64,000 bases of DNA from Thermomonas sp. Lineage in GTDB: Bacteria > Pseudomonadota > Gammaproteobacteria > Xanthomonadales > Xanthomonadaceae. The notes under the pieces are model-generated. The model did not search any database, was not told where the DNA came from, and worked only from the letters and a program-made list of their open reading frames with translations. The stretch spans positions 62,001-126,000 of the forward strand of contig JADKKV010000002.1 of NCBI GenBank assembly GCA_016720345.1. The letters run 5' to 3'. Positions 2,100 to 18,441 of the stretch are shown here, piece by piece (within the stretch, counting starts at the first letter, position 1; each line of letters starts with the position of its first letter). A program made the position numbers and the translations under genes.

Positions 2100-3503
2100 T
2101 CAGGTCAGCCCGAAGGCGTAATACAGGCCGATCACCACGAACACCGCCATGGTCTTGATGCAGGTGATCGCGAAAATGTCCTTGTAGGCCTGCCGATGGG
2201 TCAGGCCGGTCACCGCAAGCAGGGTGATCACCGCGCCGTTGTGCGGCAGCGTGTCCATCCCGCCGGAGGCCATCGCGGCGACCCGGTGCAGGACTTCCAT
2301 CGGGATCCCGGCGGCGTTCGCGTTGGCGATGAAGGTCTCCGCCATCGCCGCCAGCGCGATGCTCATGCCGCCGGACGCGGAACCGGTGATGCCGGCCAGC
2401 GCAGTGACGGTGACCGCTTCGTTGACCAGCGGGTTCGGGATCGATCCCAGTGCGTTGGCGACCACCAGGAACCCGGGCAGGGCAGCGATCACCGCGCCGA
2501 AGCCGTATTCCGAGGCGGTGTTCATGCCGGCCAGCAAGGCGCCGGAAATGGCCGACCTGCTGCCTTCCGCGAAGCTGGTCGTTACCGGCTTCCACGCGAA
2601 CAGCAGCACGCAGGCAATGCCCGCCAGCAGAGCGCCTTCCACCGCCCAGATCGCTGCCACCTTCGAGACTTCCTGCACCACCGGCGCGGCGCTGCCGATC
2701 ACCGCCGGGTCGAAGCTGTGGCTGGCGCCGTAGTGTTGCGGGATCCACAGCGTCAGCAGCTTGTTGACGATGCCGACCACCAGCAGCGGCAGGATCGCAA
2801 CGGCGGGATTGGCAAGCTTGCCGCCGGCGAACGGCACGGGCTCGTTGAACAGGCTGGCGGCATCGCCGTAGCCTTCGCCCGCCTCCAGTGCGGCGCGACG
2901 GCGCGATTCGAGGTACAGCATGCCCAGGATCAGGATGAAGATGCCGCCCAGCGTGCCCAGCACCGGCGCGGCCCAGGTGTCGGTGCCGAAGAAGGTGGTG
3001 GGGATGATGTTCTGGATCTGCGGGGTGCCCGGCAGCGCATCCATGGTGAAGGTGAACGCGCCAAGGGCAATGGTGCCGGGGATCAGCCGCTTGGGGATGT
3101 CGCTCTGGCGGAACAGTTCGGCGGCGAACGGATACACCGCGAACACCACCACGAACAGCGACACCCCGCCGTAGGTCAGCAGCGCGCACACCAGCACGAT
3201 CGACAGCATCGCCCGCTGCGCGCCGACCACCCGGATGGTGGCGGCCACGATCGACTTCGAGAAACCGGACAGCTCGATCACCTTGCCGAACAGCGCGCCC
3301 AGCAGGAACACCGGGAAGTACAGCTTCAGGAAGCCGACCATCTTGTCCATGAACAGGCCGGTGAACATCGGTGCCACCAGCTGCGGGTCGGTCAGCAGCA
3401 CCGCGCCCAGCGCCGCCACCGGCGCGAACAGGATCACGCTGTAGCCGCGGTAGGCCACGAACATCAGGAAGCACAACGCGGCGAGCACGATCAGGAATGC
3501 CAT
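2100..3503 (-). CDS. GntP-family (gluconate-type) proton symporter
   Basis: A 467-aa inner-membrane permease with about 12 hydrophobic segments and the GntP-like features of the ion transporter superfamily: an N-terminal MAFLIVLAALCFLMF helix, a GGVSLFVVVFAVYPFA segment, and a late ASGGMSIALAAMAETF stretch with small residues. Family members import gluconate and related sugar acids or D-serine, but the substrate here cannot be read from sequence. The start at 3503 is preferred over the longer frame because a GGAG ribosome site lies 6-9 bases upstream and the first helix begins there. It diverges from a TonB-dependent receptor across 161 bp, which suggests that the pair moves one ligand across both membranes. 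Confidence 0.85.
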   Translation of the reverse strand: MAFLIVLAALCFLMFVAYRGYSVILFAPVAALGAVLLTDPQLVAPMFTGLFMDKMVGFLKLYFPVFLLGALFGKVIELSGFSKSIVAATIRVVGAQRAMLSIVLVCALLTYGGVSLFVVVFAVYPFAAELFRQSDIPKRLIPGTIALGAFTFTMDALPGTPQIQNIIPTTFFGTDTWAAPVLGTLGGIFILILGMLYLESRRRAALEAGEGYGDAASLFNEPVPFAGGKLANPAVAILPLLVVGIVNKLLTLWIPQHYGASHSFDPAVIGSAAPVVQEVSKVAAIWAVEGALLAGIACVLLFAWKPVTTSFAEGSRSAISGALLAGMNTASEYGFGAVIAALPGFLVVANALGSIPNPLVNEAVTVTALAGITGSASGGMSIALAAMAETFIANANAAGIPMEVLHRVAAMASGGMDTLPHNGAVITLLAVTGLTHRQAYKDIFAITCIKTMAVFVVIGLYYAFGLT

Positions 3504-3514
3504 CTGCCGCTCCG

Positions 3515-3582
3515 GGCAACCGACTGAGGGATGCGAGTGTGGTTGCCGAGGGGGGCGCGGCCCATTGTCCGAATGTCCAATG
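3515..3582. promoter_or_regulatory. Candidate operator sites between permease and TonB receptor
   Basis: The 161-bp divergent gap holds two inverted repeats. One is GGCAACC at 3515-3521 with GGTTGCC at 3541-3547 (19-bp spacer), next to the permease start. The other is CATTG at 3563-3567 with CAATG at 3578-3582, in which TGTCC also occurs twice. Both could be operator half-sites for a local regulator, but no regulator gene lies beside them and no clear -35/-10 pair was assigned. This is inference from symmetry only. Confidence 0.3.
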
Positions 3583-3664
3583 CCGCGGTGCCGCCCATCC
3601 ACGCACCATGCGCTCAACCGCGGCGCCCGTCCGCAGCGTTCGATGTGCCCTCAGGAGGGGAAAG

Positions 3665-5893
3665 ATGAAGCGCAAGCAATTGAGTCTGGCGATCCATGGC
3701 GTGCTGGCCGTGTCGCTGCTGGCAACGATGCCCGTGATGGCCCAGGACGCCGCCGCAGCCGATGCTGGCGGGCAGAAGACCACCACCCTCGAGTCGATCA
3801 AGGTGACCGCGCGCAAGCGCGAGGAAACGCTGCAGGAAGTGCCGGTCGCGGTGACCGCGTTCACCGCGGACACCCTGGACAAGCTCAACGTCCGCGACCT
3901 GTCCGATCTCGACGCACAGGTGCCGAACCTGACCATCTATGCGGCGCGCGGCTCCAACAGCACGCTGACCGCCTACATCCGCGGCGTCGGCCAGTCCGAT
4001 CCGCTGTGGGGCGTCGACCCCGGCGTCGGCCTGTACATGGACGACGTGTACATCGCGCGGCCGCAGGGCGCACTGCTGGACGTGTTCGATGTCGAGCGCG
4101 TTGAAGTGCTGCGCGGTCCGCAGGGCACGCTGTACGGCAAGAACACCATCGGCGGCGCGATCAAGTACATCTCCAGGGGCCTGCGCTCCGACTTCAACGG
4201 CTTCGGTTCCCTCACCATCGGCAACTACGGCCAGCGCGACATCAAGGCGGCGGTGGGTGGCGGCCTCGGCGGCAGCGAATACCTGCGCGGCCGGATCTCG
4301 ATCGCCGACCTGCACAACGACGGCTTCGGCGAGAACATCGTCACCGGCGACCCGGTCAGCGACAAGGACGTCACCGCGTACCGCCTCAGCCTCGGCGCCT
4401 ACGTCACCGACAACTTCGACCTGCAGTTCGCGCTCGACCACATGAAGGACGGCTCCGGCGTGCGCGGCGCGCAGATGCTTCAGGCCAACCGCAACGTGCC
4501 CAACACGCCGCCGCTGGAGAGCCGCTACGACGTCCGCAACGGCATGCCGAACGTCAACGAGACCACCATGAGCGGCGCCTCGGTCACCGCGAACCTGCGC
4601 GCCAGCGACGACTGGACCTTCAAGTACGTGCTGGCCAAGCGCGAGTCGGATACCGAGACCAACATCGACTTCGACGTGACCCAGTCCAAGATCGCCGACG
4701 TCAAGGCCTTCTACGACGACGAGCAGGTCACCCACGAGCTGCAGGCGATGTACGACGGCGGCGGGCGCTCGCGCGGGGTGATGGGCGTGTACATGTTCGA
4801 CGGCTACGCCGGCGGGCAGGTGCTCAACAACTTCTTCAACTTCCTGTTCGGCGACACCCAGGGCAATGTCTACACCGAAAGCTACGCCGCCTACGCCGAC
4901 TGGACCTTCGACGTCACCGAGCAGTTCAAGGTCGACGTCGGCGCGCGCTACACCAACGAGGAAAAGCATGCGGTGGTGCTGAACCGCGGCTACTCGGACG
5001 CCACCTACACAAGGCCGATCTCGGTGGCCGCCGACTTCGACAAGACCATCAGCTTCAACAACTTCTCGCCCAAGATCTCGCTGGACTACCAGGTCACGCC
5101 GGACATCCTCGTCTATGGCCTTGCCAGCCGCGGCTTCAAGTCCGGTGGCTACAACATCCGCGCCCAGGCCACGGCCGTGCCCCGTTCGGCGGAGCCGTTC
5201 GACGACGAGCAGGTGGACAGCTACGAGGCCGGCACCAAGATGGGCCTGCTCGACGGCTCGCTGTTCCTCAACCTGTCCGCCTTCCACAACAAGTACAAGG
5301 ACATCCAGCTGTCGGTGTTCACCGCCTACGACAGCAACGGCGACGGCACCGAAGACGCCTTCTTCGGCGACTTCACCAATGCCGGTTCCGGCACGGTCAA
5401 CGGCTTCGAAGTCGAGTACCAGTGGCTGCCGAGCCAGCACTGGCTGGTCAGCGGCAACCTGGCCTGGCTGGACACCGAGTACGAGGAGTTCATGTTCGCG
5501 GGCGTCAACATCGCCGACGAGCAGGAATTCACCAACGCCCCGGATTTCTCGGGCGCCTTGAACGTGGAATACCGGACCCCGGTCGGCGCCGGCGACATTT
5601 CGGCGCGGATCGGCTACAGCTACCAGGCTTCGGTGGTTGCCACCACCGAGATCAACCGCGCGGAAGTCCCGCCGAACGGTCGCCCGCCGATCTCGCAGGA
5701 CGGTTATGGCCTGCTCAATGCCGGCGTGATCTGGAACATCAACCCGGCCTGGACGGTGTCGCTGCAGGGTACCAACCTGACCGACAAGCAGTACCTGACC
5801 ACCGGCTACAACCTCAACCGCGCATTGGGCGTGTACACCGGGTTCTACGGTCCGCCGCGCCAGTACAGCCTGAGCGTGCGCTACAACTTCTGA
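3665..5893 (+). CDS. TonB-dependent outer-membrane receptor
   Basis: A 742-aa receptor for energy-driven uptake across the outer membrane. A signal peptide spans about residues 1-24, ending at VMAQ before DAAAA. A TonB-box-like stretch (LESIKVTARKREE) follows, then a plug domain to about residue 165 with the usual RGVGQSDP and VEVLRGPQGTLYGKN motifs, and then a beta barrel ending in the outer-membrane signature SVRYNF with terminal Phe. The start at 3665 has a very strong AGGAGGGG site four bases upstream and is the only start that leaves the signal peptide at the N-terminus. The ligand is unknown. The divergent GntP-type permease hints at a sugar acid or other small carboxylate. Confidence 0.93.
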   Translation: MKRKQLSLAIHGVLAVSLLATMPVMAQDAAAADAGGQKTTTLESIKVTARKREETLQEVPVAVTAFTADTLDKLNVRDLSDLDAQVPNLTIYAARGSNSTLTAYIRGVGQSDPLWGVDPGVGLYMDDVYIARPQGALLDVFDVERVEVLRGPQGTLYGKNTIGGAIKYISRGLRSDFNGFGSLTIGNYGQRDIKAAVGGGLGGSEYLRGRISIADLHNDGFGENIVTGDPVSDKDVTAYRLSLGAYVTDNFDLQFALDHMKDGSGVRGAQMLQANRNVPNTPPLESRYDVRNGMPNVNETTMSGASVTANLRASDDWTFKYVLAKRESDTETNIDFDVTQSKIADVKAFYDDEQVTHELQAMYDGGGRSRGVMGVYMFDGYAGGQVLNNFFNFLFGDTQGNVYTESYAAYADWTFDVTEQFKVDVGARYTNEEKHAVVLNRGYSDATYTRPISVAADFDKTISFNNFSPKISLDYQVTPDILVYGLASRGFKSGGYNIRAQATAVPRSAEPFDDEQVDSYEAGTKMGLLDGSLFLNLSAFHNKYKDIQLSVFTAYDSNGDGTEDAFFGDFTNAGSGTVNGFEVEYQWLPSQHWLVSGNLAWLDTEYEEFMFAGVNIADEQEFTNAPDFSGALNVEYRTPVGAGDISARIGYSYQASVVATTEINRAEVPPNGRPPISQDGYGLLNAGVIWNINPAWTVSLQGTNLTDKQYLTTGYNLNRALGVYTGFYGPPRQYSLSVRYNF

Positions 5894-5992: not shown

Positions 5993-8900
5993 ATGCCTGA
6001 TGGTGGCGCGATGCTGAGCGTCGCCGCGGTGGTCGCCGCGGCGTTGGCGTGGCTCGGCCTGCTGTTCGGCACCGGCCTGTACGCGGAGCGCCACCCGGGC
6101 GTGTTCGCGAAGCACTGGCGGCATGTGTACGCGCTGTCGCTGGCGGTGCACTGCACCTCCTGGACCTTCTACGGCACCGTCACCCAGGCCGCGCGCTACG
6201 GCTGGCCGCTGCCGCCGACCTTCATCGGCGCGATCCTGTGCTACGCGCTTGCGGTGTTCTTCATGATCCGGCTGGTGCGGCTGGCGCGCGAGAGCAACGC
6301 CACCTCGCTGGCCGACCTGATCGCGACCCGGCTCGGCAAGGATGCGTGGCTCGCGGCCACGGTCACCCTGGTCGCGGTGCTCGGGCTGATTCCCTACATC
6401 GCCCTGCAGTTGCAGGCGATCACGATGAGTTTCTCGACGCTCACCAGTGGTGCCGGCGCCGCGGGCCAGGGCGCGCCACCGGTATTGCGCGACGGCGCGC
6501 TGTACGTGGCGCTGGCGATGGCGCTGTTCGCGATCCTGTTCGGAACCCGTCGCGCCAGTGCCGCGGAGCACAACCGCGGGCTGGTGCTGGCGATGGCGTT
6601 CGAGTCGCTGTTCAAGCTGCTGGCGATGCTGGTGCTGGGCGCGTTCGTGTGGTTCGGGCTGGACACGCTGCCGGCGGTGCCGCACGCGCAGGCTGCCGCG
6701 CCGGCCGGGGGCTTCGTGCCGCTGGTGATCCTCGGCGCACTGGCGATGTTCCTGATGCCGCACCAGTTCCATGTCGGCGTGGTGGAATGCCGCGACGATC
6801 GCGACGTGCGCACCGCGCGCTGGCAATTCCCGCTGTACCTGCTGCTGATCGCGTTGCCGGCGTTGCCTCTGGCGCGCGCCGGTGCCAGCCTGTTCGGCGA
6901 GCGGGTGCCATCCGACATGTATGCGCTGGCGCTGCCGCTGGCGCAGGGCAACCAGGGGGTTGCGCTGCTGGTGTTCCTCGGCGGCCTCAGCGCTGCCACC
7001 GGCATGGTGATCGTCAGCACCCTGACCCTCAGCCTGATGATCGGCAACCACTGGTTCGCGCCCGGCCTGCTGCGCGGCGCGTGGGCGCGCGGCATCGGTG
7101 ACGACGGTTCCGGTGACCACCGCGGCGACCTGCTGCTGCTGCGCCGCGCCGGCATCATCGCGATCATGCTGCTCGGTTGGGCCTACAGCCGGCTGGTCAG
7201 CGGCAACGAGGCGCTGGCTGACGTCGGCGCGGTCTCGTTCTCCGCGTTGGCGACGCTGGCGCCGGCGCTGGCGTTCGCGGTGTGGCGCCCGCAGACGCCT
7301 GCGAACGCGGCCAGCTTCGGCGTGCTGGCGGGGTTCGCGGCGTGGTCGTGGGTGATGCTGGTGCCGTTGATCGCGGCGACCATCGGTGCCGACCCCGCGT
7401 GGCTGCGCGAGGGTCCGTTCGGCATGCACTGGCTGGCACCCGAGGCGCTGTTCGGGTTGACCGGCTGGAGCCGGCTTGGCCGCGCGGTCGGGGTCAGCCT
7501 GTTCGTTGGCAGCGCGACAACCGTGCTGCTGGCCAGCCTGCGCGGCACGCCGCGCCGTCGCGAGGCGCGTGGCTCCGACCTGCTCACCCTGCGCAACGCC
7601 GGCCGGCGCTTCCTGCCGGCGCAGCGGGTGGACGAACTGTTGCGCGCGGCACCGGCGAAGGGGCCGGTGCCAGCCGTGATCGAATCGCGCCTTGAACACG
7701 AACTGGCTGCGATCCTGGGCAGCGCCTCGGCACGCCTGCTGCTGGATGCCGCGCGGCGCGATGCGGCGGCGGTTGACCGCAGCGGCGCCGACCTCGACAC
7801 CGTCGCCGCGATCGTCGGCGAGGCCAGCGAGGACCTGCGCTTCAACCAGCGGGTGCTGGAGGCTGCGCTCGAGAACATGAGCCAGGGCATCAGCGTGGTC
7901 GATGCCGACCTGCGCCTGGTGGCCTGGAACGGACGCTACGCGGAGCTGTTCGGCTTCCCGCCGGGGATGCTGCGGGTCGGCCTGCCGATTGCCGAGGCCT
8001 CGGCGTGGGCGCTGCGCGAGGTGGCCGGCATCGACCGCCACGGCGATGCCCTGCAGCGCCGGCTGGAACACATGCGCGCCGGCACCACCCACCTGTCCGA
8101 ACGCGTGTTCCCGGACGGCAGCATCATCGAGATCCGCGGCAACCCGATGCCGGGCGGCGGTTTCGTCGCCACCTTCACCGACGTCACCGCCTTCCGCCAG
8201 GCCGAGGCCGGGCTGATGCGGGTCAACGAAACCCTGGAGCAGCGGGTGGCCGAGCGCACCGTGTTGCTGGAGACCGCGAAGCGCGAAGCGGAGCATGCCA
8301 ACGATGCCAAGAGCCGCTTCCTCGCCGCGATCGGCCACGACCTGCTGCAGCCGCTGCACGCCGCCCACCTGTTCGCCGACACCCTGCAGCAGCGCGGCGA
8401 TGGCGAGCAGCGCGCGCTGGCGGTCCAGATCGGTGGCGCGCTGGATTCCACCACCGACCTGCTGAGCACCTTGCTGGACATGTCGCGGCTGGAGGCGGGC
8501 GGGCTGGTGCCGGAGCCGCGCCCGTTCCCGCTGGCGGACGTGCTGGATCCGCTGGTCGCGCAGTTCGGGGTAATGGCCGCGGAGCGCGGCCTGCGGCTGC
8601 GGTTCGTGGCCACCCGGGCATGGGTTCGCAGCGACCCGCAACTGCTGCGCCGGGTGCTGCAGAACTTCCTTGCGAACGCGTTGCGCTACACGCCATCAGG
8701 CAGCGTGTTGCTGGGCGTGCGCCGGCATGGCGACCGGCTGCGCATCGAGGTGCACGATACCGGCCCCGGCATCGATGCCGACCAGCGCGAGGCGATCTTC
8801 GAGGAGTTCCGCCGCGGCGACGATGCGCCCGGGCAAGGCCTGGGCCTGGGCCTGGCCATCGCCCAGCGCATCGCCGGGTTGCTCGGATCCGCGGTGCTGT

Positions 8901-9367
8901 TGCGGAGCGCGCCGGGCCACGGCAGCACGTTCGCCATCGAGGTGCCGCGCGCCAGCGCCGCGCATCCGTCGCATGCCGCGCCGCGCGGCCTGGCCGGGCT
9001 GCGGGTGCTGGTGGTCGACAACGAGCCGCAGGCGCTGGACGCGCTGGCCGGCGTGCTGCGCGGCTGGGGGTGCGACGTGGTCGCCGTGGCCGACGGCGAT
9101 GCGGCTGCGAAGGCGCTGGCGGCGCGCGCCTGTGCGTTGTGGATCTTCGACTACCACCTCGATGCCGGCGACGATGGCGTCAGCCTGCATGCGCGCCTCG
9201 CAGGTCGCTTCGGCAACACGCCCTGCCTGATCCTCAGCGCCGACCAGACCGGCGCGGTGCGCGTCGCGGCGCAGGAGGCAGGCCTGCCGCTGCTGGTGAA
9301 GCCGCTGCGGCCCTTGGCGTTGAAGTCGGTGCTGGACCGGATGCTGGCGGCGCGGGCGGTGGCTTAG
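5993..9367 (+). CDS. Transporter-linked hybrid histidine kinase (SLC5-STAC-PAS-HisKA-HATPase-REC), CrbS/MxtR-like
   Basis: An 1124-aa membrane sensor. Residues 1 to about 520 form a sodium:solute-symporter (SLC5) region with some 13 helices. A STAC-like linker (LLTLRNAGRRFLPAQRVDEL onward, about 530-590) follows, then a PAS domain (from about 628), HisKA with phosphoacceptor H782 in AIGHDLLQPL, an HATPase with the N box (NFLANALRY), the G1 box (DTGPGID) and a GLGLGLAIAQ box, and a C-terminal receiver with acceptor D1053 and Lys in LLVKPLRP. This is the architecture of CrbS/MxtR, which controls acetate use in Vibrio and Pseudomonas. The matching NarL-type regulator lies 1.2 kb downstream. Start 5993 versus Met-7 is not decided. 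Confidence 0.93.
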   Translation: MPDGGAMLSVAAVVAAALAWLGLLFGTGLYAERHPGVFAKHWRHVYALSLAVHCTSWTFYGTVTQAARYGWPLPPTFIGAILCYALAVFFMIRLVRLARESNATSLADLIATRLGKDAWLAATVTLVAVLGLIPYIALQLQAITMSFSTLTSGAGAAGQGAPPVLRDGALYVALAMALFAILFGTRRASAAEHNRGLVLAMAFESLFKLLAMLVLGAFVWFGLDTLPAVPHAQAAAPAGGFVPLVILGALAMFLMPHQFHVGVVECRDDRDVRTARWQFPLYLLLIALPALPLARAGASLFGERVPSDMYALALPLAQGNQGVALLVFLGGLSAATGMVIVSTLTLSLMIGNHWFAPGLLRGAWARGIGDDGSGDHRGDLLLLRRAGIIAIMLLGWAYSRLVSGNEALADVGAVSFSALATLAPALAFAVWRPQTPANAASFGVLAGFAAWSWVMLVPLIAATIGADPAWLREGPFGMHWLAPEALFGLTGWSRLGRAVGVSLFVGSATTVLLASLRGTPRRREARGSDLLTLRNAGRRFLPAQRVDELLRAAPAKGPVPAVIESRLEHELAAILGSASARLLLDAARRDAAAVDRSGADLDTVAAIVGEASEDLRFNQRVLEAALENMSQGISVVDADLRLVAWNGRYAELFGFPPGMLRVGLPIAEASAWALREVAGIDRHGDALQRRLEHMRAGTTHLSERVFPDGSIIEIRGNPMPGGGFVATFTDVTAFRQAEAGLMRVNETLEQRVAERTVLLETAKREAEHANDAKSRFLAAIGHDLLQPLHAAHLFADTLQQRGDGEQRALAVQIGGALDSTTDLLSTLLDMSRLEAGGLVPEPRPFPLADVLDPLVAQFGVMAAERGLRLRFVATRAWVRSDPQLLRRVLQNFLANALRYTPSGSVLLGVRRHGDRLRIEVHDTGPGIDADQREAIFEEFRRGDDAPGQGLGLGLAIAQRIAGLLGSAVLLRSAPGHGSTFAIEVPRASAAHPSHAAPRGLAGLRVLVVDNEPQALDALAGVLRGWGCDVVAVADGDAAAKALAARACALWIFDYHLDAGDDGVSLHARLAGRFGNTPCLILSADQTGAVRVAAQEAGLPLLVKPLRPLALKSVLDRMLAARAVA

Positions 9368-9383
9368 GGCAGGGCCCGGCGCG

Positions 9384-9938
9384 CTACCAGACCAGGTCGT
9401 CGGGTACCTGGAACTGCGCGTAGTAGGCGTCGTCGTCGGAGCTGGCGGGAGCAGGCCCGGCGTCCGCGCCAAGGCCGTGGTCGAGCACGACCATGCCGGG
9501 ATCGCGTTCTCGCACCTTGTCGCCGGCCGCGCGCGGCAGCAGCTCGTGGCGTTCGCCATGGCGGACGATCACCAGCAGGCCGGAGGACAGTTGCCTGCGC
9601 TGGTCGTCGCTGACCAGGATCGCGCGGATCGCGCCGTCGGCGGTGAAGCGGTATTCGCTGTCGCCGGCCCCGGCCACTTTCTTGTCCTCGATGATCTGCC
9701 GTGCCTGTGCACGCAGTTCCATGGTGCGCGCCTGCGCCTTGCGTTCGAGCGAGAGCGCGCGGTCGCGCTCGGCCTTGCCGGCGCGTGCACGCTCGGCTTC
9801 CAGCGCGATCTCGCTGGGCCCGGACGCTGCCCTGGCATGCTTGGCCTTGTGCTGCTCGCGCGCCACCTCGGCCAGCTTGGACTTCTTGACCAGGCCGGCC
9901 TTGAGCAACTGTTCCTGCAGTGGATTCGGCTTGGCCAT
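9384..9938 (-). CDS. DUF2058 family protein (YaiL-like)
   Basis: A 184-aa soluble protein. It opens with MAKPNPLQEQLLKAGLV, the typical DUF2058 N-terminus, followed by a charged, probably coiled helix rich in Lys, Arg, Glu and Ala (about 20-85). A small beta-rich domain (SEYRFTADGAI to about 160) and an acidic tail with DDDAYYAQFQVPDDLVW close it. E. coli YaiL has been linked to nucleoprotein/polysaccharide annotations, but its function is not established. The start at 9938 has an AGGAAA site about 8 bases upstream. It is convergent with the kinase, with a 16-bp gap, so it is not in that transcript. Confidence 0.85.
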   Translation of the reverse strand: MAKPNPLQEQLLKAGLVKKSKLAEVAREQHKAKHARAASGPSEIALEAERARAGKAERDRALSLERKAQARTMELRAQARQIIEDKKVAGAGDSEYRFTADGAIRAILVSDDQRRQLSSGLLVIVRHGERHELLPRAAGDKVRERDPGMVVLDHGLGADAGPAPASSDDDAYYAQFQVPDDLVW

Positions 9939-10003
9939 GACCCGGTTTCCTGTTGGTGGACGCGGCGCCATGATAGCGGCCAACGCCGCCGGCACTTCGA
10001 CGC

Positions 10004-10501
10004 ATGGACGCCCTGAAATACCTCGCCGGCTATCCGCCCGCCCTGCAACTGCAGGTGCGCGAACTGCTCGCGCAAGGACGCGTTGGCCCCATGCTTGCGG
10101 AGAGGTACGGCGAGCCGCATGCCGTGCGCAACGACGGCCAGCTGTACGCCTACGTGCAGGCGCTGAAGGATCGCCACCTGCGCAAGTCGGTGCCGCTGGG
10201 CAAGGTCGCCTACGACGGCAAGCTGCAGGTGATGAAGCATGCGCTCGGCACCCACGCCGCCACCTCGCGGGTGCACGGCGGCAGGCTCAAGGCCAGCCGC
10301 GAGATCCGCATCGCCTCGGTGTTCCGCGACGCCCCCGCTGCATTCCTGAAGATGATCGTGGTGCACGAACTGGCGCACCTGAAGGAATTCGAGCACAACA
10401 AGGCGTTCTACCAGTTGTGCACGCACATGGTGCCCGACTACCACCAGTTGGAGTTCGACCTGCGCCTGTACCTGACCCACCTCGAGGCCAAACCGGCTTG
10501 A
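10004..10501 (+). CDS. YgjP-like zinc metallopeptidase domain protein
   Basis: A 165-aa protein with the HELAH zinc motif in VVHELAHLKEFEHNKAFY, plus a downstream His (EHNKAF) as third ligand, which is the pattern of the YgjP/WLM-type minigluzincin peptidases (DUF45). There is no signal peptide, so it is cytoplasmic. The substrate is unknown. It starts 65 bp from the divergent DUF2058 gene and ends 19 bp before the convergent response regulator. The start at 10004 is the first Met and no strong ribosome site is visible. Confidence 0.85.
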   Translation: MDALKYLAGYPPALQLQVRELLAQGRVGPMLAERYGEPHAVRNDGQLYAYVQALKDRHLRKSVPLGKVAYDGKLQVMKHALGTHAATSRVHGGRLKASREIRIASVFRDAPAAFLKMIVVHELAHLKEFEHNKAFYQLCTHMVPDYHQLEFDLRLYLTHLEAKPA

Positions 10502-10520
10502 GGCCGGTTGGCAGCCGCGC

Positions 10521-11186
10521 TCAGCCCTCGATCTGGCGCGCCGGGTCGGACAGTTCCAGTTCGCGCAGGACCACCCCGGCCTGGGTGCGGTTGCGCACGC
10601 CCAGGCGTTCGAAGATCGCGGTCAGGTGCGCCTTGACCGTGCGTTCCTGCACGTCCAGGCGGTCCGCGATCTGCTTGTTGAGCAGACCCTCGGCGACCAG
10701 CACCAGCACCCGGAACTGCTGCGGCGACAGGCTGGCCAGGCGCGCGGCCAGCGCCGCGTCGTTGGGCGAGCTCTGCGCGCGCGTGACCGAGGCACGCAAC
10801 GCCGGCGGCAGCCAGGTGTCGCAGGCGAGCACGCAGCGGATGGCATCGCGCAGGTCGTCGAGGCCGGCGCTCTTCGGCAGGTAGCCGGCGGCGCCGTGGT
10901 CGAGCGCGCGCCGGATCACGCGCGGATCGTCGTTGGCGGAGATCACGATCACCGCGACCCCCGGATACTGCGCGCGTACCGCCGCAAGGCCAGCCAGGCC
11001 GTGGTTGCCGGGCATGTGCAGGTCGAGCAGCACCAGGTCCACCTGCGGTTGCGCATCGAGCAGGGCCAGCACCGCCTCCAGGGTGCCGGCCTCGAACAGC
11101 TCGACTTCGCCCAGCGCATCGCGCGCGGCCTGCCGCAAGGCGGCGCGGAACAGCGGATGGTCGTCGGCGATGACGAGGGTGGGCAT
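10521..11186 (-). CDS. NarL/LuxR-type response regulator, CrbR/ErdR-like
   Basis: A 221-aa regulator. The receiver domain (1-120) has ADDH acidic residues and phosphoacceptor D55 in VLLDLHMPG, with Lys in LPKSAG. A LuxR helix-turn-helix spans about 150-215 (LNKQIADRLDVQERTVKAHL). The overall form and DDHPLFRAAL start resemble ErdR/CrbR/AgmR, the partners of SLC5-linked kinases such as the one at 5993-9367. It begins 10 bp after the stop of the 3-hydroxybutyrate dehydrogenase gene on the same strand, so the two are very likely co-transcribed. This placement suggests that it controls C2/C4 and polyhydroxybutyrate metabolism, which is an inference. The start at 11186 sits where receiver homology begins. 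Confidence 0.9.
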   Translation of the reverse strand: MPTLVIADDHPLFRAALRQAARDALGEVELFEAGTLEAVLALLDAQPQVDLVLLDLHMPGNHGLAGLAAVRAQYPGVAVIVISANDDPRVIRRALDHGAAGYLPKSAGLDDLRDAIRCVLACDTWLPPALRASVTRAQSSPNDAALAARLASLSPQQFRVLVLVAEGLLNKQIADRLDVQERTVKAHLTAIFERLGVRNRTQAGVVLRELELSDPARQIEG

Positions 11187-11196
11187 CGCGCCGGGC

Positions 11197-12021
11197 CTAT
11201 TGCGCGGTCCAGCCGCCATCCACCGGCAGCGAGGCGCCGGTGATGTTGTGCGCCTCGCGCCGGCACAGGAACACCGCCAGCGCGGCGATCTCGGCGGGCA
11301 GGCTCATGCGCAGGCTGGGCTGCTTCTCGGCCAGCAGCGCACGCACGCCGTCATCGCGCGAGCCGCCGGCCATGCGCGCCTCGATCTGCGGCTCGATCAG
11401 CGGCGTCTCCACCCAGCCGGGGCAGACGCAGTTGACGGTGATCCCGCCGGAGTCGCGCGACCCTTGCGCGGCGTATTCCAGCGCGGCGACCTTGCTGAGG
11501 CCGACGATGCCGAACTTGCTGGCCACGTACGGCGCCTTGTCCTTCGATGCCACCAGCCCGTGCACCGAGGCGATGTTGACCACCCGGCCGTAGCCGCGCG
11601 CGGCCATCGCCGGCATCGCCGCGCGCATGGTGTGGAACGCGGACGACAGGTTGACCGCGATGATGTCGTTCCACCTCGAGACCGGCATCTCGTGCAGCGG
11701 CACCGCGTGCTGGATGCCGGCGTTGTTGACCAGGATATCGATGCCACCGTTCGACCAGGCGTCGAGGTCGGCCATCATCGCCGCGATCGCGTCGGCATCG
11801 CGCAGGTCGGCGCCAAAGTGGCGGGTGCCGCCGTTGCCCGCGGCATCGACGGTGGCGATCGCCGACGCGACCTGCTCCGGCGTGCCCAGCCCGTTGATCG
11901 CAACCTTGCTGCCGGCCGCGGCCAACGCAGTGGCGATCGCGAGGCCGATGCCGGAGGTGCTGCCGGTCACCAGTGCGGTGCGGCCCTGCAGGAAAGTGTC
12001 TCGGTGGGTGGGGTCGTTCAT
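11197..12021 (-). CDS. bdhA: 3-hydroxybutyrate dehydrogenase (short-chain dehydrogenase)
   Basis: A 274-aa SDR enzyme that interconverts (R)-3-hydroxybutyrate and acetoacetate with NAD. It has the Rossmann motif TGSTSGIG (near 20), NNAGIQ, the catalytic Ser in NIASVHG and the YVASK Tyr-Lys pair. The tail AEKQPSLR...LPVDGGW is the BdhA pattern. The start at 12021 (MNDPTHRD) is preferred, since upstream Met codons would add an unconserved Arg-rich extension. It is first in an operon with the response regulator and diverges from a PHB-oligomer hydrolase. This enzyme uses the product of that hydrolase, so the divergon makes a short degradative route. An alternative is another SDR of the family, but the C-terminus argues for BdhA. 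Confidence 0.92.
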   Translation of the reverse strand: MNDPTHRDTFLQGRTALVTGSTSGIGLAIATALAAAGSKVAINGLGTPEQVASAIATVDAAGNGGTRHFGADLRDADAIAAMMADLDAWSNGGIDILVNNAGIQHAVPLHEMPVSRWNDIIAVNLSSAFHTMRAAMPAMAARGYGRVVNIASVHGLVASKDKAPYVASKFGIVGLSKVAALEYAAQGSRDSGGITVNCVCPGWVETPLIEPQIEARMAGGSRDDGVRALLAEKQPSLRMSLPAEIAALAVFLCRREAHNITGASLPVDGGWTAQ

Positions 12022-12094
12022 CGCGGTTCCATGTCGCCGTGCGCCAGCGGCATACGCTAGCAGGCCGCGGCGAAGGATGCCGTTGCCGGCACTG

Positions 12095-12133
12095 GTACGA
12101 AGGTACGATGCGGCGCGGCCGCGGGCGTCGTAC
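12095..12133. promoter_or_regulatory. Three GTACGA half-sites in the bdhA/hydrolase divergent promoter
   Basis: GTACGA occurs at 12095-12100 and again at 12103-12108. Its reverse complement TCGTAC is at 12128-12133. The first two are direct repeats 8 bp apart; the second and third form an inverted repeat. All lie within 50 bp of the hydrolase start and about 75-110 bp from the bdhA start. This spacing fits a shared operator. The NarL-type regulator encoded in the bdhA operon is the obvious candidate, but that assignment is inference. Confidence 0.45.
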
Positions 12134-12142
12134 TGTCCGCGC

Positions 12143-13930
12143 ATGAACATCCTCCGTCATGGCGCCTGCGCCGCCGCCATCGCCCTGTTGTCCGCCTGCG
12201 CGGGCGTGCCTGCATCCTCCGGGAACCCGTCCATGTTCAGCCAGCAACGCACCACCGAGCATCGCGACGGCGACGACCTGCTGACCGCAGGGCTTGGGCT
12301 GGAGGGGCTGCGCGCGATGCTCCCGCCGGCGTTCGCCGACGCCGATCATCCAACCCCGGCCGAGTTGCGCCGGCGCGCGCTGTGGAGCAACTGGCGCGGG
12401 ATCGCCGACCTCGCCCCGGGCGGCGGCTATGGCGAGGTCTACGGCAGCGTGGCCAGCGTCCCGGGCCGCGAGTTCAGCGCGTTCGCGCAGGTGCCGGGCG
12501 CGACCCAGCCGCACCGCGTGCTGCTGCAGGTGCCGGATGCGTTCGATGCGAAGAAGCGCTGCATCGTGGTGGCGGCCTCTTCGGGATCGCGCGGGATCCA
12601 TGGCGCCATCGCCGTCGCGGGTGCGTGGGGCCTGCCGAAGGGCTGCGCGGTGGCCTACACCGACAAGGGCGCAGGCACCGACTACTTCGACCTGGATGCG
12701 GGGCAGGGGATCACCGCGGACGGAACGGCGGCGGCCACGGACGCGAAGCTGGCGTTCAAGCCGGGCGCGACCAGCGGCACCGGCGTTGCCTACAAGCATG
12801 CGCATTCGCAGGACAACCCGGAAGCCGCCTGGGGCCGCCACGTGAAGCAGGCGGCGCAGTTCGCACTGGAGTCCTTGGATGAGGCCCTGCCGGCGCAGGC
12901 GCCTTTCACCTTCGGCAACACGCGGGTGATCGCGGTCGGCATTTCCAACGGCGGTGGCGCGGTGCTGCGTGCGGCGGAGGACGGCGATGATTGGCTGGAT
13001 GCCGTCGTGGCTGGCGAACCCAACGTGCTGGTGGGAGGCCACGGCGCGCGCAACCTGTTCGACTACAGCAGCGATGCCGCATTGCTGATGCCCTGCGCGT
13101 TGCCGCAACTCGGCATCCCGGCGATGCCGGGGCTGGAGGCCAAATGCGCCGCACTGGCGGTGCGTGGCGTGCTCGCAGGCGACACCTTCGAGGCCCGCCA
13201 ACAGGACGCGCTGGCCAAGCTGCGCGCCGGCGGCTGGACCGATGCCGCGCTGCGCGCAGGCTCGATCAGCGTGGCCTTCGACCTGTGGCGCGCGGTCGGC
13301 GTGGGCTATGCCTCGGCTTACGGCCGCTATCCGCATGACGCGCATCCCTGCGGTTACCGCTATTCCGCGATGAACCCGGATCTCAGCGTGCGCGCGGCCA
13401 CCACGGCCGAACGCGCGGCATGGGTCGCGGATGCAAGCGGGATTCCGCCCGGCGCAGGCGTGGGCATCATCGATCCGCAAGCGCCCGCCGACATGGGCCT
13501 CACCGGCCTGCAGTGCCTGCGTGCCCTCTGGACGGCCGACAGCGCGGATGCGCGACGCGTCCGCAAGGGCATCGAGGAGACCCGTGCCGGCCTGCCGCGC
13601 AAGGGCCTGCCGGTCGTGGTGATCCATGGCACCGACGACGGCCTGGTGCCGCAGGCGTTCTCCAGCGCGCCGTACGTGGCGATGGCGAAGTCCGCGGGCC
13701 GCGACGTGCGCTACTGGCAGGTCCGCAACGTGCAGCACTTCGATGCCTTCCTGGGCTTCCCGCAGTACGGCGCGTTCTACCTGCCGCTGCTGCCCTACGT
13801 CTACAACGCACTGGACCGGGTGGACGCGTACCTGGACGGCAACGGCACGCTGCCGGCCGACGCGGTGATCAGCACCATTCCGCGCGCCGGGAAACCGCTG
13901 GCGGGCGACAACCTGGCGATGCCGCGCTGA
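12143..13930 (+). CDS. 3-hydroxybutyrate oligomer hydrolase, predicted lipoprotein
   Basis: A 595-aa hydrolase of the D-(-)-3-hydroxybutyrate oligomer hydrolase family, which splits soluble PHB oligomers to monomers. A signal sequence with lipobox LLSAC (Cys near residue 17) predicts a lipid-anchored envelope protein. The nucleophile lies in VGISNGGGA near residue 270, an Asp in IHGTDDGLVP and a His in VQHFDAF close to the end complete a plausible triad. The protein is somewhat shorter than the roughly 650-700 aa of the Ralstonia enzyme. The start at 12143 places the lipobox correctly. The divergent bdhA would oxidise the released monomer. An extracytoplasmic location, if real, means that it acts on imported or extracellular oligomers more than on granules. 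Confidence 0.87.
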   Translation: MNILRHGACAAAIALLSACAGVPASSGNPSMFSQQRTTEHRDGDDLLTAGLGLEGLRAMLPPAFADADHPTPAELRRRALWSNWRGIADLAPGGGYGEVYGSVASVPGREFSAFAQVPGATQPHRVLLQVPDAFDAKKRCIVVAASSGSRGIHGAIAVAGAWGLPKGCAVAYTDKGAGTDYFDLDAGQGITADGTAAATDAKLAFKPGATSGTGVAYKHAHSQDNPEAAWGRHVKQAAQFALESLDEALPAQAPFTFGNTRVIAVGISNGGGAVLRAAEDGDDWLDAVVAGEPNVLVGGHGARNLFDYSSDAALLMPCALPQLGIPAMPGLEAKCAALAVRGVLAGDTFEARQQDALAKLRAGGWTDAALRAGSISVAFDLWRAVGVGYASAYGRYPHDAHPCGYRYSAMNPDLSVRAATTAERAAWVADASGIPPGAGVGIIDPQAPADMGLTGLQCLRALWTADSADARRVRKGIEETRAGLPRKGLPVVVIHGTDDGLVPQAFSSAPYVAMAKSAGRDVRYWQVRNVQHFDAFLGFPQYGAFYLPLLPYVYNALDRVDAYLDGNGTLPADAVISTIPRAGKPLAGDNLAMPR

Positions 13931-14050: not shown

Positions 14051-14117
14051 CCCGCGTGCGTTGACGTGGCATCGTCATGACCGCATTGCTAGCATGGCTG
14101 CAACGCGTGGAGGTCAC

Positions 14118-15170
14118 ATGGCACAGGGTTCCAACGATTTCGAGGCGCTGGCGCGCCAATACTGGGGCATGTGGGGCGATGCCGTGCGCGGTGCGATCCC
14201 GCAGGCAGGTGCCGATGCGGGCGTGCAGGGCTTCCGCGATGCACTCGGCGCGTGGACCAGCATGGCCGGAGGCGGAAACGGCGGGATGGACGCCGTGCTC
14301 GGGCATTTCAACCGCCAGAACAGCGACTGGTTCGCGCAGATGCAGCAGGTTGCCGCGCAATTCGCCGGCCGCGAGCACAGCGCGCAGGACGTGGCCAGGG
14401 CCTGGCAGCAGATGCTGGGCGGCAACCCGTTCCAGGGCCTGATGCACGGCATGCGCGGCCCCGGCCTGCAGGACCTGGAGCAGTGGAGCCAGTCTGCCGC
14501 GCCGTGGCTGCACAACCTCCGTAGCGAAGCGGCGAGCACGCTCGGAATGCCGGCCTTCGGGTTCGCCCGCGAGCACCAGGAGCGGCTGCAGGCCCTGGGG
14601 CAGGCGCAGCTGCGCTGGCAGGATGCGTTGTCCGAGTACAACAGCCTGATGGCGAAGACCTCGCAGGACGCGTATGCACGCTTCGAGTCGAAGCTGGCCG
14701 AGCGCGAGGAACCGGGACGCCAGCTGGGCAGCGTGCGCGCCCTGTTCGACCTCTGGGTCGATGCCGCGGAAGAAGCCTATGCCGCAAGCGCGTTGTCCCT
14801 CGAGTACCGCAAGGCCTACGGCGAACTGGTCAATGCGCAGATGCAGTTGCGTTCGCGCGCGCAGGTGATCGCCGAGCAGGCGTCGATGCAACTGGGGATG
14901 CCGGGCCGCACCGAACTCGACAGCGCGCATCGAAAGATCGCGGAACTGGAACGCCAGCTGCGGCGCCTCCAGCGCAAGGCTGAGGCTGCCGAACCGACCG
15001 CTGTGGTTACCGCTGCAGGTAAGCCGGCATCCAAGGCGAAGCCCGCCAAGAAAACGGCGAAGGGAGCGGCGAAGAAGGCAGCGAAACCGGTCGCCACGAG
15101 GGCTGCAGGAAAGGCAGTGAAGAAGGCGACCGCGCGCAAGCCGGCCAAGCCCGCCGCGAGGAAGCGCTGA
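14118..15170 (+). CDS. phaE: Class III polyhydroxyalkanoate synthase, PhaE subunit, with Lys/Ala-rich tail
   Basis: A 350-aa non-catalytic subunit that activates PhaC. The N-terminal part (FEALARQYWGMWGDA, repeated Trp-Gln helices) and the middle helices match PhaE. A coiled-coil of about 25 residues follows (HRKIAELERQLRRLQRK, near 285). The last 45 residues are nearly all Lys, Ala, Pro and Arg (AKPAKKTAKGAAKK and similar), like the histone-H1-type tail of the phasin PhaF. Such a tail could bind DNA and tie granules to the nucleoid. The start at 14118 has GGAGG seven bases upstream, and TTGACG at 14061 may be a -35 element. It is followed by phaC after one base. Confidence 0.93.
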   Translation: MAQGSNDFEALARQYWGMWGDAVRGAIPQAGADAGVQGFRDALGAWTSMAGGGNGGMDAVLGHFNRQNSDWFAQMQQVAAQFAGREHSAQDVARAWQQMLGGNPFQGLMHGMRGPGLQDLEQWSQSAAPWLHNLRSEAASTLGMPAFGFAREHQERLQALGQAQLRWQDALSEYNSLMAKTSQDAYARFESKLAEREEPGRQLGSVRALFDLWVDAAEEAYAASALSLEYRKAYGELVNAQMQLRSRAQVIAEQASMQLGMPGRTELDSAHRKIAELERQLRRLQRKAEAAEPTAVVTAAGKPASKAKPAKKTAKGAAKKAAKPVATRAAGKAVKKATARKPAKPAARKR

Positions 15171-15171
15171 C

Positions 15172-16248
15172 ATGGATGCATTCGGGCCACTCAACATCAC
15201 CGCCGAGTCGCTGGCGCTGGAAGCGGACACCATCCGGCGCAAGCTGGAGGCCGGGATCGGCACCCTGCGTGCAATGGATCCGGTGGATTTCGGCGTCACC
15301 CCGCGCGAGGAAGTCTGGCGCGACGGCAAGACCGTGCTGTACCGCTTCCGCGTCGATCGCGCACCCACCGCGAAGGTGCCGCTGCTGGTCTGTTACGCGC
15401 TGGTCAACCGTCCGTACATGGTCGACCTGCAGGCCGATCGCTCGCTGGTGAAGGGGCTGCTGGAGCGCGGCGAGGACGTCTACATCATCGACTGGGGCTA
15501 CCCGGACCGCAGCGACCGCTTCCTCACCCTGGAGGACTACATCGAACGCTTCATCGGCGGTGCGGTCGACCACCTGCGCAAGGCCCACGCGCTGGACGCG
15601 ATCAACCTGCTCGGGATCTGCCAGGGCGGCGTGTTCTCGCTGTGCTATGCGGCGCTGCACCCCGGCAAGGTGCGCAACCTGGTCACCATGGTCACCCCGG
15701 TGGATTTCCATACCCCGGACAACATGCTGTCGAACTGGAACCGCGAGATCGACGTCGACCTGCTGGTCGACACGCTGGGCAACATCCCCGCGGACATGAT
15801 GAACCTCACCTACCTGATGCTGAAGCCGTGGCGGCTGTTCGCGCAGAAGTACGTGGGCATGGTCGACATCCTCGACGACCGCAAGGCGATGGAGGATTTC
15901 CTGCGCATGGAGAAGTGGATCTTCGATTCGCCCGACCAGGCTGGCGAAGCCTTCCGCGAATTCGACACCCAGTTCTTCCAGGGCAACGGCTTCGTCAACG
16001 GCGGCGTGCGCATCGGCGACGAGGAGGTGCACCTGGGCCTGGTGGAAATGCCGATCCTCAACATCTTCGCCGAGCAGGACCACCTGGTGCCGCCGGACGC
16101 CTCGCGCGCCTTGCGCGACCTCGCCGGGACCCGCGACTACACCGAGCTTTCGTTCAAGGGCGGCCACATCGGCATCTACGTGTCCGGGCGTGCGCAGAAG
16201 GAAGTGCCGCAGACCATCCACGAGTGGCTGGCCAAGCGTTCGCGCTGA
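15172..16248 (+). CDS. phaC: Class III polyhydroxyalkanoate synthase, PhaC catalytic subunit
   Basis: A 358-aa alpha/beta-hydrolase-fold synthase that polymerises (R)-3-hydroxyacyl-CoA. The size is right for class III, as class I enzymes are about 590 aa. The lipase-like box has the nucleophile Cys, C150 in GICQGG. D303 in AEQDHLVPP and H332 in GGHIGIYV complete the triad. It starts one base after the phaE stop, so translation is likely coupled. No phaA, phaB or phaR lies in the window, so precursor supply is encoded elsewhere. Confidence 0.97.
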   Translation: MDAFGPLNITAESLALEADTIRRKLEAGIGTLRAMDPVDFGVTPREEVWRDGKTVLYRFRVDRAPTAKVPLLVCYALVNRPYMVDLQADRSLVKGLLERGEDVYIIDWGYPDRSDRFLTLEDYIERFIGGAVDHLRKAHALDAINLLGICQGGVFSLCYAALHPGKVRNLVTMVTPVDFHTPDNMLSNWNREIDVDLLVDTLGNIPADMMNLTYLMLKPWRLFAQKYVGMVDILDDRKAMEDFLRMEKWIFDSPDQAGEAFREFDTQFFQGNGFVNGGVRIGDEEVHLGLVEMPILNIFAEQDHLVPPDASRALRDLAGTRDYTELSFKGGHIGIYVSGRAQKEVPQTIHEWLAKRSR

Positions 16249-18308: not shown

Positions 18309-18328
18309 GGGTGAAGTGTATCCGGGGC

Positions 18329-18441
18329 GCACCGCTGCCCTGCCATGGGTGTCGCGCCGCTTAGGCTCCGCATCCCGCTCCGATGCGCGGGCGCAGGCCA
18401 TCCATGGCCTGCTCGCGACACCCACGGCAGGGCAGCGGTGC
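18329..18441. repeat. 113-bp palindromic element with 28-bp arms
   Basis: The left arm (18329-18356) and right arm (18414-18441) are reverse complements at 27 of 28 positions; the left begins GCACCGCTGCCCTGCC and the right ends with its complement. The 57-base centre contains smaller stems: GCATC/GATGC and GGCCAT/ATGGCC. It fills nearly the whole gap between the ccmI stop (18442) and the metX start. It could end the ccm transcript, fold in the metX leader, or be a miniature mobile element. No target duplication is obvious. Confidence 0.8.

What the first reader, a model, noticed from the sequence alone, without database searches (positions are those of the whole stretch)
5993..12021. An acetate-switch-like kinase/regulator pair built into a polyhydroxybutyrate locus
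The hybrid kinase has the full SLC5-STAC-PAS-HK-REC layout of CrbS/MxtR, and the NarL-type regulator looks like CrbR/ErdR. In Vibrio and Pseudomonas these control acetyl-CoA synthetase. Here the regulator is the second gene of an operon whose first gene is 3-hydroxybutyrate dehydrogenase, opposite a PHB-oligomer hydrolase and upstream of phaEC. The layout suggests that carbon-status sensing controls polyester breakdown, a link I do not know to be described.
Basis: partly seen in the sequence, partly recalled or inferred. Interest (0 to 1): 0.72.

Follow-up and report, generated by a model that had tools for sequence, protein, structure and literature searches.

The report
Dedicated 3-hydroxybutyrate sensor beside PHB genes
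A membrane sensor and its partner regulator, cousins of the bacterial acetate switch but a separate branch, appear to control the genes that use the building block of a natural polyester, giving many soil and water bacteria a likely dedicated sensor for that compound.

Summary
Kinase (5993-9367), NarL-type regulator (10521-11186), bdhA (11197-12021), oligomer hydrolase 3HBOH (12143-13930) and phaEC are as described. But this Thermomonas genome also carries the canonical acetate set elsewhere (acs-crbR, crbS nearby, actP). The window pair is a second, parallel system whose regulator and kinase form clades of their own, apart from the acs-linked ones and, where an order is named, seen only in Lysobacterales. 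Its genomic partner is 3HBOH (next to the regulator in 68 of 80 named relatives; 0 of 50 other family loci); a 3-hydroxybutyrate dehydrogenase-type gene lies between in 30 of 80, from two subfamilies. I found a likely operator in the 3HBOH/bdhA divergent promoter: TAC-N4-GTA, first of 832 palindromes tested, related to but distinct from the acetate operator (GAC-N4-GTC at 9 of 10 acs promoters). It lies between 3HBOH and bdhA in 24 of 25 Thermomonas genomes, also where the regulator is 10 kb away. Sensor-pocket positions mapped on CbrA differ from acetate-type kinases. Best reading: a dedicated 3-hydroxybutyrate switch, a new-specificity branch of the SLC5/STAC family, not acetate sensing wired to PHB. 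Ligand, binding and phosphotransfer are inferred, untested.

The parts
5993..9367 (+). Hybrid sensor kinase 'kinB': SLC5 transporter-like domain, STAC-like linker, PAS, DHp/CA, REC
   Evidence: Pfam/NCBIfam; PDB profile match; model and fold search; clade
10521..11186 (-). NarL/LuxR-type response regulator 'rrB' (ATG 11186; an upstream in-frame ATG at 11219 also exists)
   Evidence: alignment A1; tree
11197..12021 (-). 3-hydroxybutyrate dehydrogenase bdhA, likely first gene of an operon with rrB
12093..12108 (-). Predicted operator TCGTACCTTCGTACCA (core TAC-N4-GTA, 12096-12105) in the divergent bdhA/3HBOH promoter
12143..13930 (+). 3HB-oligomer hydrolase (PF10605), with a lipoprotein-like signal (LSAC)
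14061..15170 (+). PHA synthase class III subunit PhaE (neighbour; no operator of its own found in the window)
15172..16248 (+). Alpha/beta hydrolase, inferred PhaC of a class III synthase (neighbour)
3371..5893 (+). TonB-dependent receptor upstream of the kinase; relatives of it are in view in 41 of the 49 named loci that show a kinase
9384..9995 (-). DUF2058 protein, probably a passenger
10004..10501 (+). YgjP-like metallopeptidase, probably a passenger

Best explanation
The window pair is a dedicated two-component switch for 3-hydroxybutyrate (3HB), a branch of the CrbS/CrbR (SLC5/STAC) family that runs in parallel with the acetate switch of the same cell. Proposed mechanism: 3HB (or a close relative) enters the transporter-like pocket of the kinase's SLC5 domain; the change is relayed through the STAC-like and PAS parts to the kinase core (inferred from CbrA/CrbS); the kinase phosphorylates the regulator; the regulator binds TAC-N4-GTA in the divergent promoter and raises 3HBOH on one side and bdhA-regulator on the other, a positive loop. 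3HBOH cuts oligomers to 3HB (often with a lipoprotein-like signal, so perhaps outside the cytoplasm) and BDH oxidises 3HB to acetoacetate. Shown by sequence: architecture, separate clades of both partners, conserved link to 3HBOH/BDH, a distinct conserved palindrome in that promoter. Inferred: the ligand, phosphotransfer, that this regulator binds that palindrome, and the sign of control.
For: (1) A canonical acetate set is elsewhere in the genome: actP, DUF485, porin, acs-crbR, crbS. (2) Regulator tree, 111 rows: B clade of 65 rows, SH-aLRT 96; every row with a stated order is Lysobacterales, six MAG rows name no order; acs-linked Lysobacterales regulators lie in another clade, 99, with one row from outside the order. 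Kinase tree, 60 rows: B clade of 37 rows, 100. Both partners part from the acetate pair. (3) 3HBOH lies divergently next to the regulator in 68 of 80 named loci and in 0 of 50 other family loci; acs is directly upstream in 23 of those 50 and in 0 of the 80. (4) A BDH-like gene sits between in 30 of 80: 15 orthologous to the window's, 15 of another subfamily, 36-44% identical to it; the three divergent ones scanned (L063, L066, L148) all pass the TIGR01963 3HB-dehydrogenase cut-off; at least 4 changes of kind on the regulator tree among 21 rows. (5) TAC-N4-GTA is first of 832 palindromes, in 55 of 87 intergenics against a shuffle mean of 0.7, maximum 2; it or TAC/GAC variants in 63 of 69 (shuffle mean 12.9, maximum 25); acs promoters GAC-N4-GTC in 9 of 10, TAC-N4-GTA in 0 of 10. 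(6) The near-exact site lies between 3HBOH and bdhA in 24 of 25 Thermomonas genomes; in T. flagellata it does so although the regulator is 10.5 kb off. (7) Of 8 CbrA pocket positions, 73 (L/I/V/M in 37 of 37 B; F/Y in 17 of 17 others) and 248 (G in 37 of 37; A/S in 18 of 18) do not overlap between groups; positions that separate A from B cluster in the membrane half, 25 of 124 conserved columns against 3 of 66 in the kinase core.
Against: No expression or binding data. The kinase is not always near: in view in 43 of 61 named loci with 9 kb downstream. No BDH in the slot in 50 of 80. 12 of 80 lack 3HBOH there (2 of them cut short); in S. maltophilia L134 an AMP-dependent acyl-CoA ligase takes its place, and weak acs matches say the same of L136 and L142, all three with TAC-N4-GTA, so the ligand may differ or be wider than 3HB. 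Six of 69 loci with 3HBOH have no site of this form, and 20 of 69 only mixed or GAC forms. The window BDH passes one of two BDH cut-offs. Pocket mapping rests on an alignment to CbrA and on a weakly occupied density in a preprint; group differences also build up by descent alone (pocket enrichment p 0.006 by one count, 0.04 by the other). The kinase core hardly differs between A and B, so cross-talk is possible.
Confidence: 0.6

Rival explanations
1. One reading: an acetate (carbon-status) switch that has been wired to polyester breakdown, so acetate controls bdhA, 3HBOH and phaEC.
For: Family membership; best NCBIfam match ErdR; kinase core and REC nearly unchanged between the two types (3 of 66 and 1 of 20 conserved columns differ).
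Against: The genome has its own acs-crbR and crbS; separate clades; different palindrome and recognition helix (R before T in 80 of 80 B rows, A in 23 of 23 acs-linked); changed pocket positions. With up to 2 mismatches the site was found four times in this genome: at bdhA/3HBOH (0 mismatches), at two identical places beside probable rRNA operons (1 each), and inside a purA-like gene (2); none at phaEC.
Confidence: 0.12
2. Same dedicated switch, but the sensed compound is not 3HB itself: acetoacetate, crotonate, butyrate, 3HB dimers or medium-chain 3-hydroxy acids.
For: In S. maltophilia L134 the partner gene is an AMP-dependent acyl-CoA ligase; the pocket changes suggest only a different, perhaps roomier ligand.
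Against: 3HBOH in 68 of 80 and two different BDH subfamilies in the same slot point to 3HB.
Confidence: 0.2
3. The regulator mainly controls itself; bdhA and 3HBOH are bystanders in a convenient place.
For: The regulator lies in the bdhA operon, and where no dehydrogenase is in between it is itself the first gene opposite 3HBOH.
Against: In T. flagellata the site lies between bdhA and 3HBOH although the regulator is 10.5 kb away, and no site of this form is in the 250 bp upstream of that regulator.
Confidence: 0.06

Closest known systems
CrbS/CrbR (MxtR/ErdR), acetate switch of Vibrio and Pseudomonas (PMC5715377: passages and section 16; PMC8402216: passages)
   Same: SLC5-STAC-PAS-kinase-REC plus LuxR-type regulator; regulator often beside a short-chain-acid enzyme; inverted-repeat operator of similar form (ACTU motif)
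   Different: Different clade for both partners, partner gene 3HBOH/BDH not acs, palindrome TAC-N4-GTA not GAC-N4-GTC, helix QER not SEA, pocket positions changed
RpuS/RpuR of Sinorhizobium fredii, pyruvate switch (PMC9100948: passages)
   Same: A second SLC5/STAC pair beside CrbS/R in one genome with its own substrate and target
   Different: Alphaproteobacterial; target is the pyruvate symporter MctP; 'hydroxybut' occurs 0 times in the paper
CbrA of Pseudomonas, histidine transceptor (PMC13022988: passages and section 7; PDB 10ed_A taken to be it)
   Same: SLC5-STAC part aligns over 4-558; the Na2-site lysine K196 corresponds to K208, invariant in the 55 kinases compared
   Different: Works with CbrB, a sigma54-type regulator (recalled); binds histidine; no REC in the kinase (recalled)
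PA2005, sigma54 enhancer-binding regulator of bdhA in P. aeruginosa (seen only as cited in passages of PMC13390443)
   Same: Controls a 3HB dehydrogenase
   Different: Sigma54 activator, not an SLC5/STAC two-component pair
Human SMCT1 (SLC5A8)
   Different: Transporter only, remote in sequence (14% identity)

Membership tests
SLC5/STAC histidine kinases | SLC5-fold sensor domain fused to the kinase | tested here: met
SLC5/STAC histidine kinases | STAC four-helix domain between SLC5 and PAS | tested here: inconclusive
   Helices 530-538, 543-549, 561-575, 577-592 in the model; the alignment to 10ed_A reaches 558 only; no STAC model of its own was run
CrbS (acetate-type kinase) | PAS-DHp-CA-REC hybrid kinase layout | tested here: met
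CrbS/CrbR acetate switch | Groups with acs-linked CrbS/CrbR rather than apart from them | tested here: not met
   Separate clades for regulator and kinase; quick trees, SH-aLRT only
CrbR/ErdR | Over the curated cut-off of NCBIfam NF041830 | tested here: not met
   226 bits against 390; but the genome's acs-linked regulator also fails it (240 bits), so the model is narrow: 1 of 274 genomes of the class passed it, at 434.9
CrbS/CrbR acetate switch | ACTU-type operator, GAC-N4-GTC, at the target promoter | tested here: not met
   Window has TAC-N4-GTA; 5 of 69 B loci hold a GAC-N4-GTC somewhere in the region
CrbS/CrbR acetate switch | Needed for growth on acetate and acs induction | not testable with these tools
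   needs mutants
3-hydroxybutyrate dehydrogenase | Match over a curated cut-off | tested here: met
   NF009093 277.5 over 258; but TIGR01963 280.3 under 307

The most novel reading that the evidence does not exclude
A subfamily of transporter-fused sensor kinases spread through an order of bacteria is dedicated to the PHB monomer: the first two-component sensor for 3-hydroxybutyrate, split from acetate sensing with matching changes in pocket, recognition helix and operator, and acting through very few operators, perhaps one, per genome.
Probability: 0.45. Interest if true: 0.72.

Novelty: new variant of a known kind. Interest (0 to 1): 0.6.

Why it matters
Few SLC5/STAC kinases have been studied (acetate, histidine/glucose, pyruvate), and how they choose ligands is open. 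Here one genome holds two related pairs, one with acs and one with 3HBOH/BDH, that differ at a short list of sensor-pocket, DNA-reading and operator positions. That makes ligand choice and paralogue insulation in this family directly testable, would give polyester breakdown a dedicated sensor, and could serve as a 3HB biosensor.

Tried and rejected
Pfam SSF as the test of SLC5: it misses the kinase, so a PDB profile match and a structure model were used. The idea that the window pair is this genome's only CrbS/R was dropped. That B arose by recent duplication of the local acetate pair was dropped. An exogenous-PHB reading resting on an extracellular depolymerase: PF10503 has no match in this genome (10 of 25 Thermomonas genomes match, 5 over the cut-off, most weakly), whereas intracellular PhaZ (PF06850) is in 25 of 25, here at C5:109924, with no site within 40 kb. 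17196-18425 looked like a PHB hydrolase but is MetX. Of four operator matches in this genome, two identical ones (C5:1023317, C6:198313) lie beside what look like rRNA operons and one (C5:66227) lies inside a purA-like gene; I set them aside (rRNA not formally tested, purA named by recall from its sequence). PDB 10ed did not appear in the fold search; it may be later than that library. An Alteromonadales-like second copy (L228, L232, L235, L241; order guessed, genomes unnamed) is sister to B on the regulator tree (93) but not on the kinase tree, so I claim no such tie.

L172 lies outside the B clade; it is in the 80 but not in the B rows. One search left L206, L210, L080 and L081 (B-type) out of the non-B set. 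One search used 111 regulators after dropping those over 86% identical to one kept. One search used a wrong-frame acs query, corrected; the acs promoter stretches were cut from those approximate matches (about 480 bases each, longer than the B intergenics), and no shuffle control was run for them. Named and unnamed loci overlap (for example L060 and L094), and dereplicated 94 intergenics only to 87, so they are not independent; one search uses window and named loci. The pattern was taken from this locus, so weaker sites elsewhere would be missed. One search scanned 3 divergent BDHs, of which L148 is among the 15 named ones and L063 looks like the genome of L107. The lipobox count (60 of 91) is a crude regular expression. 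Group C has 10 kinases, 5 from loci with acs directly upstream; group A has 8, of which 7 have residues in the TM2-3 columns.
Full report
WHAT IS THERE. The described genes are real and in place. Kinase 5993-9367(+), DUF2058 9384-9995(-), YgjP 10004-10501(+), regulator 10521-11186(-), bdhA 11197-12021(-), 3HBOH 12143-13930(+), phaE 14061-15170(+), phaC-like 15172-16248(+). The bdhA stop and the regulator ATG are 10 bp apart, so one operon is likely. The kinase has PAS, HisKA, HATPase and REC by Pfam. Pfam's SSF model fails on its membrane part, but a profile of 34 orthologous N-termini finds PDB 10ed_A, a histidine kinase, at E 2.5e-83, and the AlphaFold2 model is an SLC5 fold. I take 10ed_A to be CbrA because residues quoted in PMC13022988 (Y51, S53, W55, K196) fall at the right numbers in the alignment; the entry itself says only 'histidine kinase'.

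TWO PAIRS, NOT ONE. The genome has a second regulator with a better ErdR score (240 bits against 226) and a second full-length kinase, 44-46% identical. They lie together on contig C5, with acs directly upstream of the regulator and actP, DUF485 and a DcaP-type porin opposite. That is the canonical acetate arrangement. The window pair (B) is therefore an extra system. The genus name Thermomonas comes from the nearest named relatives.

TREES. On 111 regulators the window regulator is in a clade of 65 rows, SH-aLRT 96. Every row there with a stated order or family is of Lysobacterales; six metagenome rows name no order. acs-linked regulators of Lysobacterales form another clade (99, with one row from outside the order). 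On 60 kinases the window kinase is in a clade of 37 rows with support 100. These are quick trees without bootstrap. In a draw of 398 genomes of the phylum, 147 have a match to the B profile at E 1e-50 or better, but matches of 300 bits or more were seen only in the window's order.

NEIGHBOURS. In 80 named loci (genera include Thermomonas, Lysobacter, Luteimonas, Stenotrophomonas, Pseudoxanthomonas, Arenimonas, Silanimonas, Rhodanobacter, Dyella, Dokdonella, Wenzhouxiangella) 3HBOH lies divergently within 2 kb of the regulator in 68 (66 of 76 with at least 2 kb of sequence there); a dehydrogenase is in between in 30; a kinase is in view in 43 of the 61 loci with 9 kb downstream; of all 49 loci with a kinase in view, 41 also show a relative of the TonB receptor. 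Of 50 non-B loci none has 3HBOH there, and 23 have acs directly upstream, against 0 of the 80. The dehydrogenase slot is held by two kinds: 15 orthologous to the window's (66-88% identical) and 15 that are 36-44% identical. The three of the divergent kind that I scanned (L063, L066, L148) pass the TIGR01963 3-hydroxybutyrate dehydrogenase cut-off (341, 358, 349 bits; cut-off 307), which the window's own does not (280), though it passes that of NF009093. On the regulator tree the kind changes at least 4 times among 21 rows. Replacement of one 3HB dehydrogenase by another in the same slot is hard to explain unless 3HB oxidation is what is regulated.

OPERATOR. Reading the divergent promoters side by side showed CATCGTAC[C/T]TT[C/G]GTACCAG. 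Counting all 832 three-base palindromes with spacers 0-12 in 87 intergenics put TAC-N4-GTA first, in 55 of 87 against a dinucleotide-shuffle mean of 0.7 and maximum of 2 (30 shuffles; related sequences). In the named set plus window with 3HBOH, 43 of 69 have TAC-N4-GTA, 63 of 69 that or a form with one or two GAC/GTC half-sites (shuffle mean 12.9, maximum 25), 6 of 69 none. Ten acs promoters: GAC-N4-GTC in 9 (the tenth locus is cut short), TAC-N4-GTA in none, in line with the published ACTU motif (PMC5715377, section 16). More distant B loci tend to mixed or GAC forms, which suggests a stepwise change from an ancestral site. In the window the site is 12093-12108, centred about 80 bp upstream of bdhA and 42 bp upstream of 3HBOH. 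Within 64 kb it is the only match with under 3 mismatches. Across 25 Thermomonas genomes, a search allowing one mismatch gives one site in 24 and three in the window's genome. In 24 of 25 the site lies between 3HBOH and bdhA (22 by the script's test, and two in loci cut by a contig end, by their coordinates). One of the 24, T. flagellata, has the regulator 10.5 kb away. The 25th, T. hydrothermalis, has a weaker form there (TAC-N4-GTC) and its one search hit elsewhere. The recognition helix has R before T in 80 of 80 B regulators (QER in 74) and A there in 23 of 23 acs-linked ones.

SENSOR. Comparing 37 B kinases with 8 acs-linked kinases of the A clade and 10 others: columns conserved in both B and A but with different residues are 25 of 124 in residues 1-500 and 3 of 66 in 746-1000. 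Eight residues line the histidine pocket of CbrA (PMC13022988, section 7). Two of their counterparts do not overlap at all between B and the rest: position 73 (CbrA F71, the lid) L/I/V/M against F/Y, and 248 (CbrA F248) G against A/S. Position 55 is T in B, S in A and mostly T in the others; 77 is F in B, Y in A and mixed in the others. The lysine that fills the sodium site in CbrA (K196; K208 here) is invariant. Smaller residues at 73 and 248 would make room for a larger acid than acetate; this is inference.

MECHANISM AND CONFIDENCE. Architecture, the separate pair, the conserved 3HBOH/BDH link and the palindrome are shown. Control of that promoter by this regulator I hold at about 0.85; 3HB or a close derivative as ligand at about 0.6; the full model at 0.6. 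The sign (activation) and a positive loop are taken from CrbR. 3HBOH has a lipobox-like start in 60 of 91 loci by a crude test, so the pathway may serve 3HB oligomers met outside the cytoplasm as well as the cell's own PHB; the intracellular depolymerase is elsewhere, with no site near.

LITERATURE. Searches of the held open-access library listed no paper whose title or abstract start describes an SLC5/STAC or other two-component system for 3HB. 'hydroxybut' occurs 0 times in PMC5715377, PMC9100948, PMC13022988 and PMC8402216. Two listed papers that hold both CrbS and hydroxybutyrate, PMC8871633 (a CbrAB review) and PMC8694187 (PAS and Cache domains), were seen only as listings. In P. aeruginosa bdhA is under a sigma54 activator, PA2005 (as cited in passages of PMC13390443). 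RpuS/R (PMC9100948) is a precedent for a second SLC5/STAC pair with another substrate, which is why I call this a new variant and not a new kind. Most subscription papers are not in that library.

Noticed in passing
L200, L201, L206, L210 (genome G223): One genome of the window's family holds four regulators of this family: with acs, with 3HBOH-bdhA, with 3HBOH plus an AMP-dependent acyl-CoA ligase, and with a porin, a D-serine-dehydratase-like protein and a GntP permease. Suggests the family radiates by substrate.
   Followed up: partly
L134, L136, L142 (Stenotrophomonas maltophilia): B-type regulator and kinase with a TAC-N4-GTA site, but no 3HBOH; the divergent gene is an AMP-dependent acyl-CoA ligase (NF004837, scanned in L134; weak acs matches in the other two).
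   Followed up: partly
L228, L232, L235, L241: Genomes of one unnamed gammaproteobacterial family (f150) have a second pair beside a TonB receptor and a MetX-like hydrolase, with a GntP-type permease in those looked at (L228, L232, L235); ligand unknown.
   Followed up: partly
window 767-2083(-) and 2100-3617(-): Two long open frames with coding-like base composition; no Pfam or NCBIfam match at the thresholds used.
   Followed up: no
G000 C5:1023317 and C6:198313 (L276, L277): Two identical near-operator sequences TCGTACTTGCGTACGA in duplicated stretches that look like rRNA operon surroundings.
   Followed up: partly
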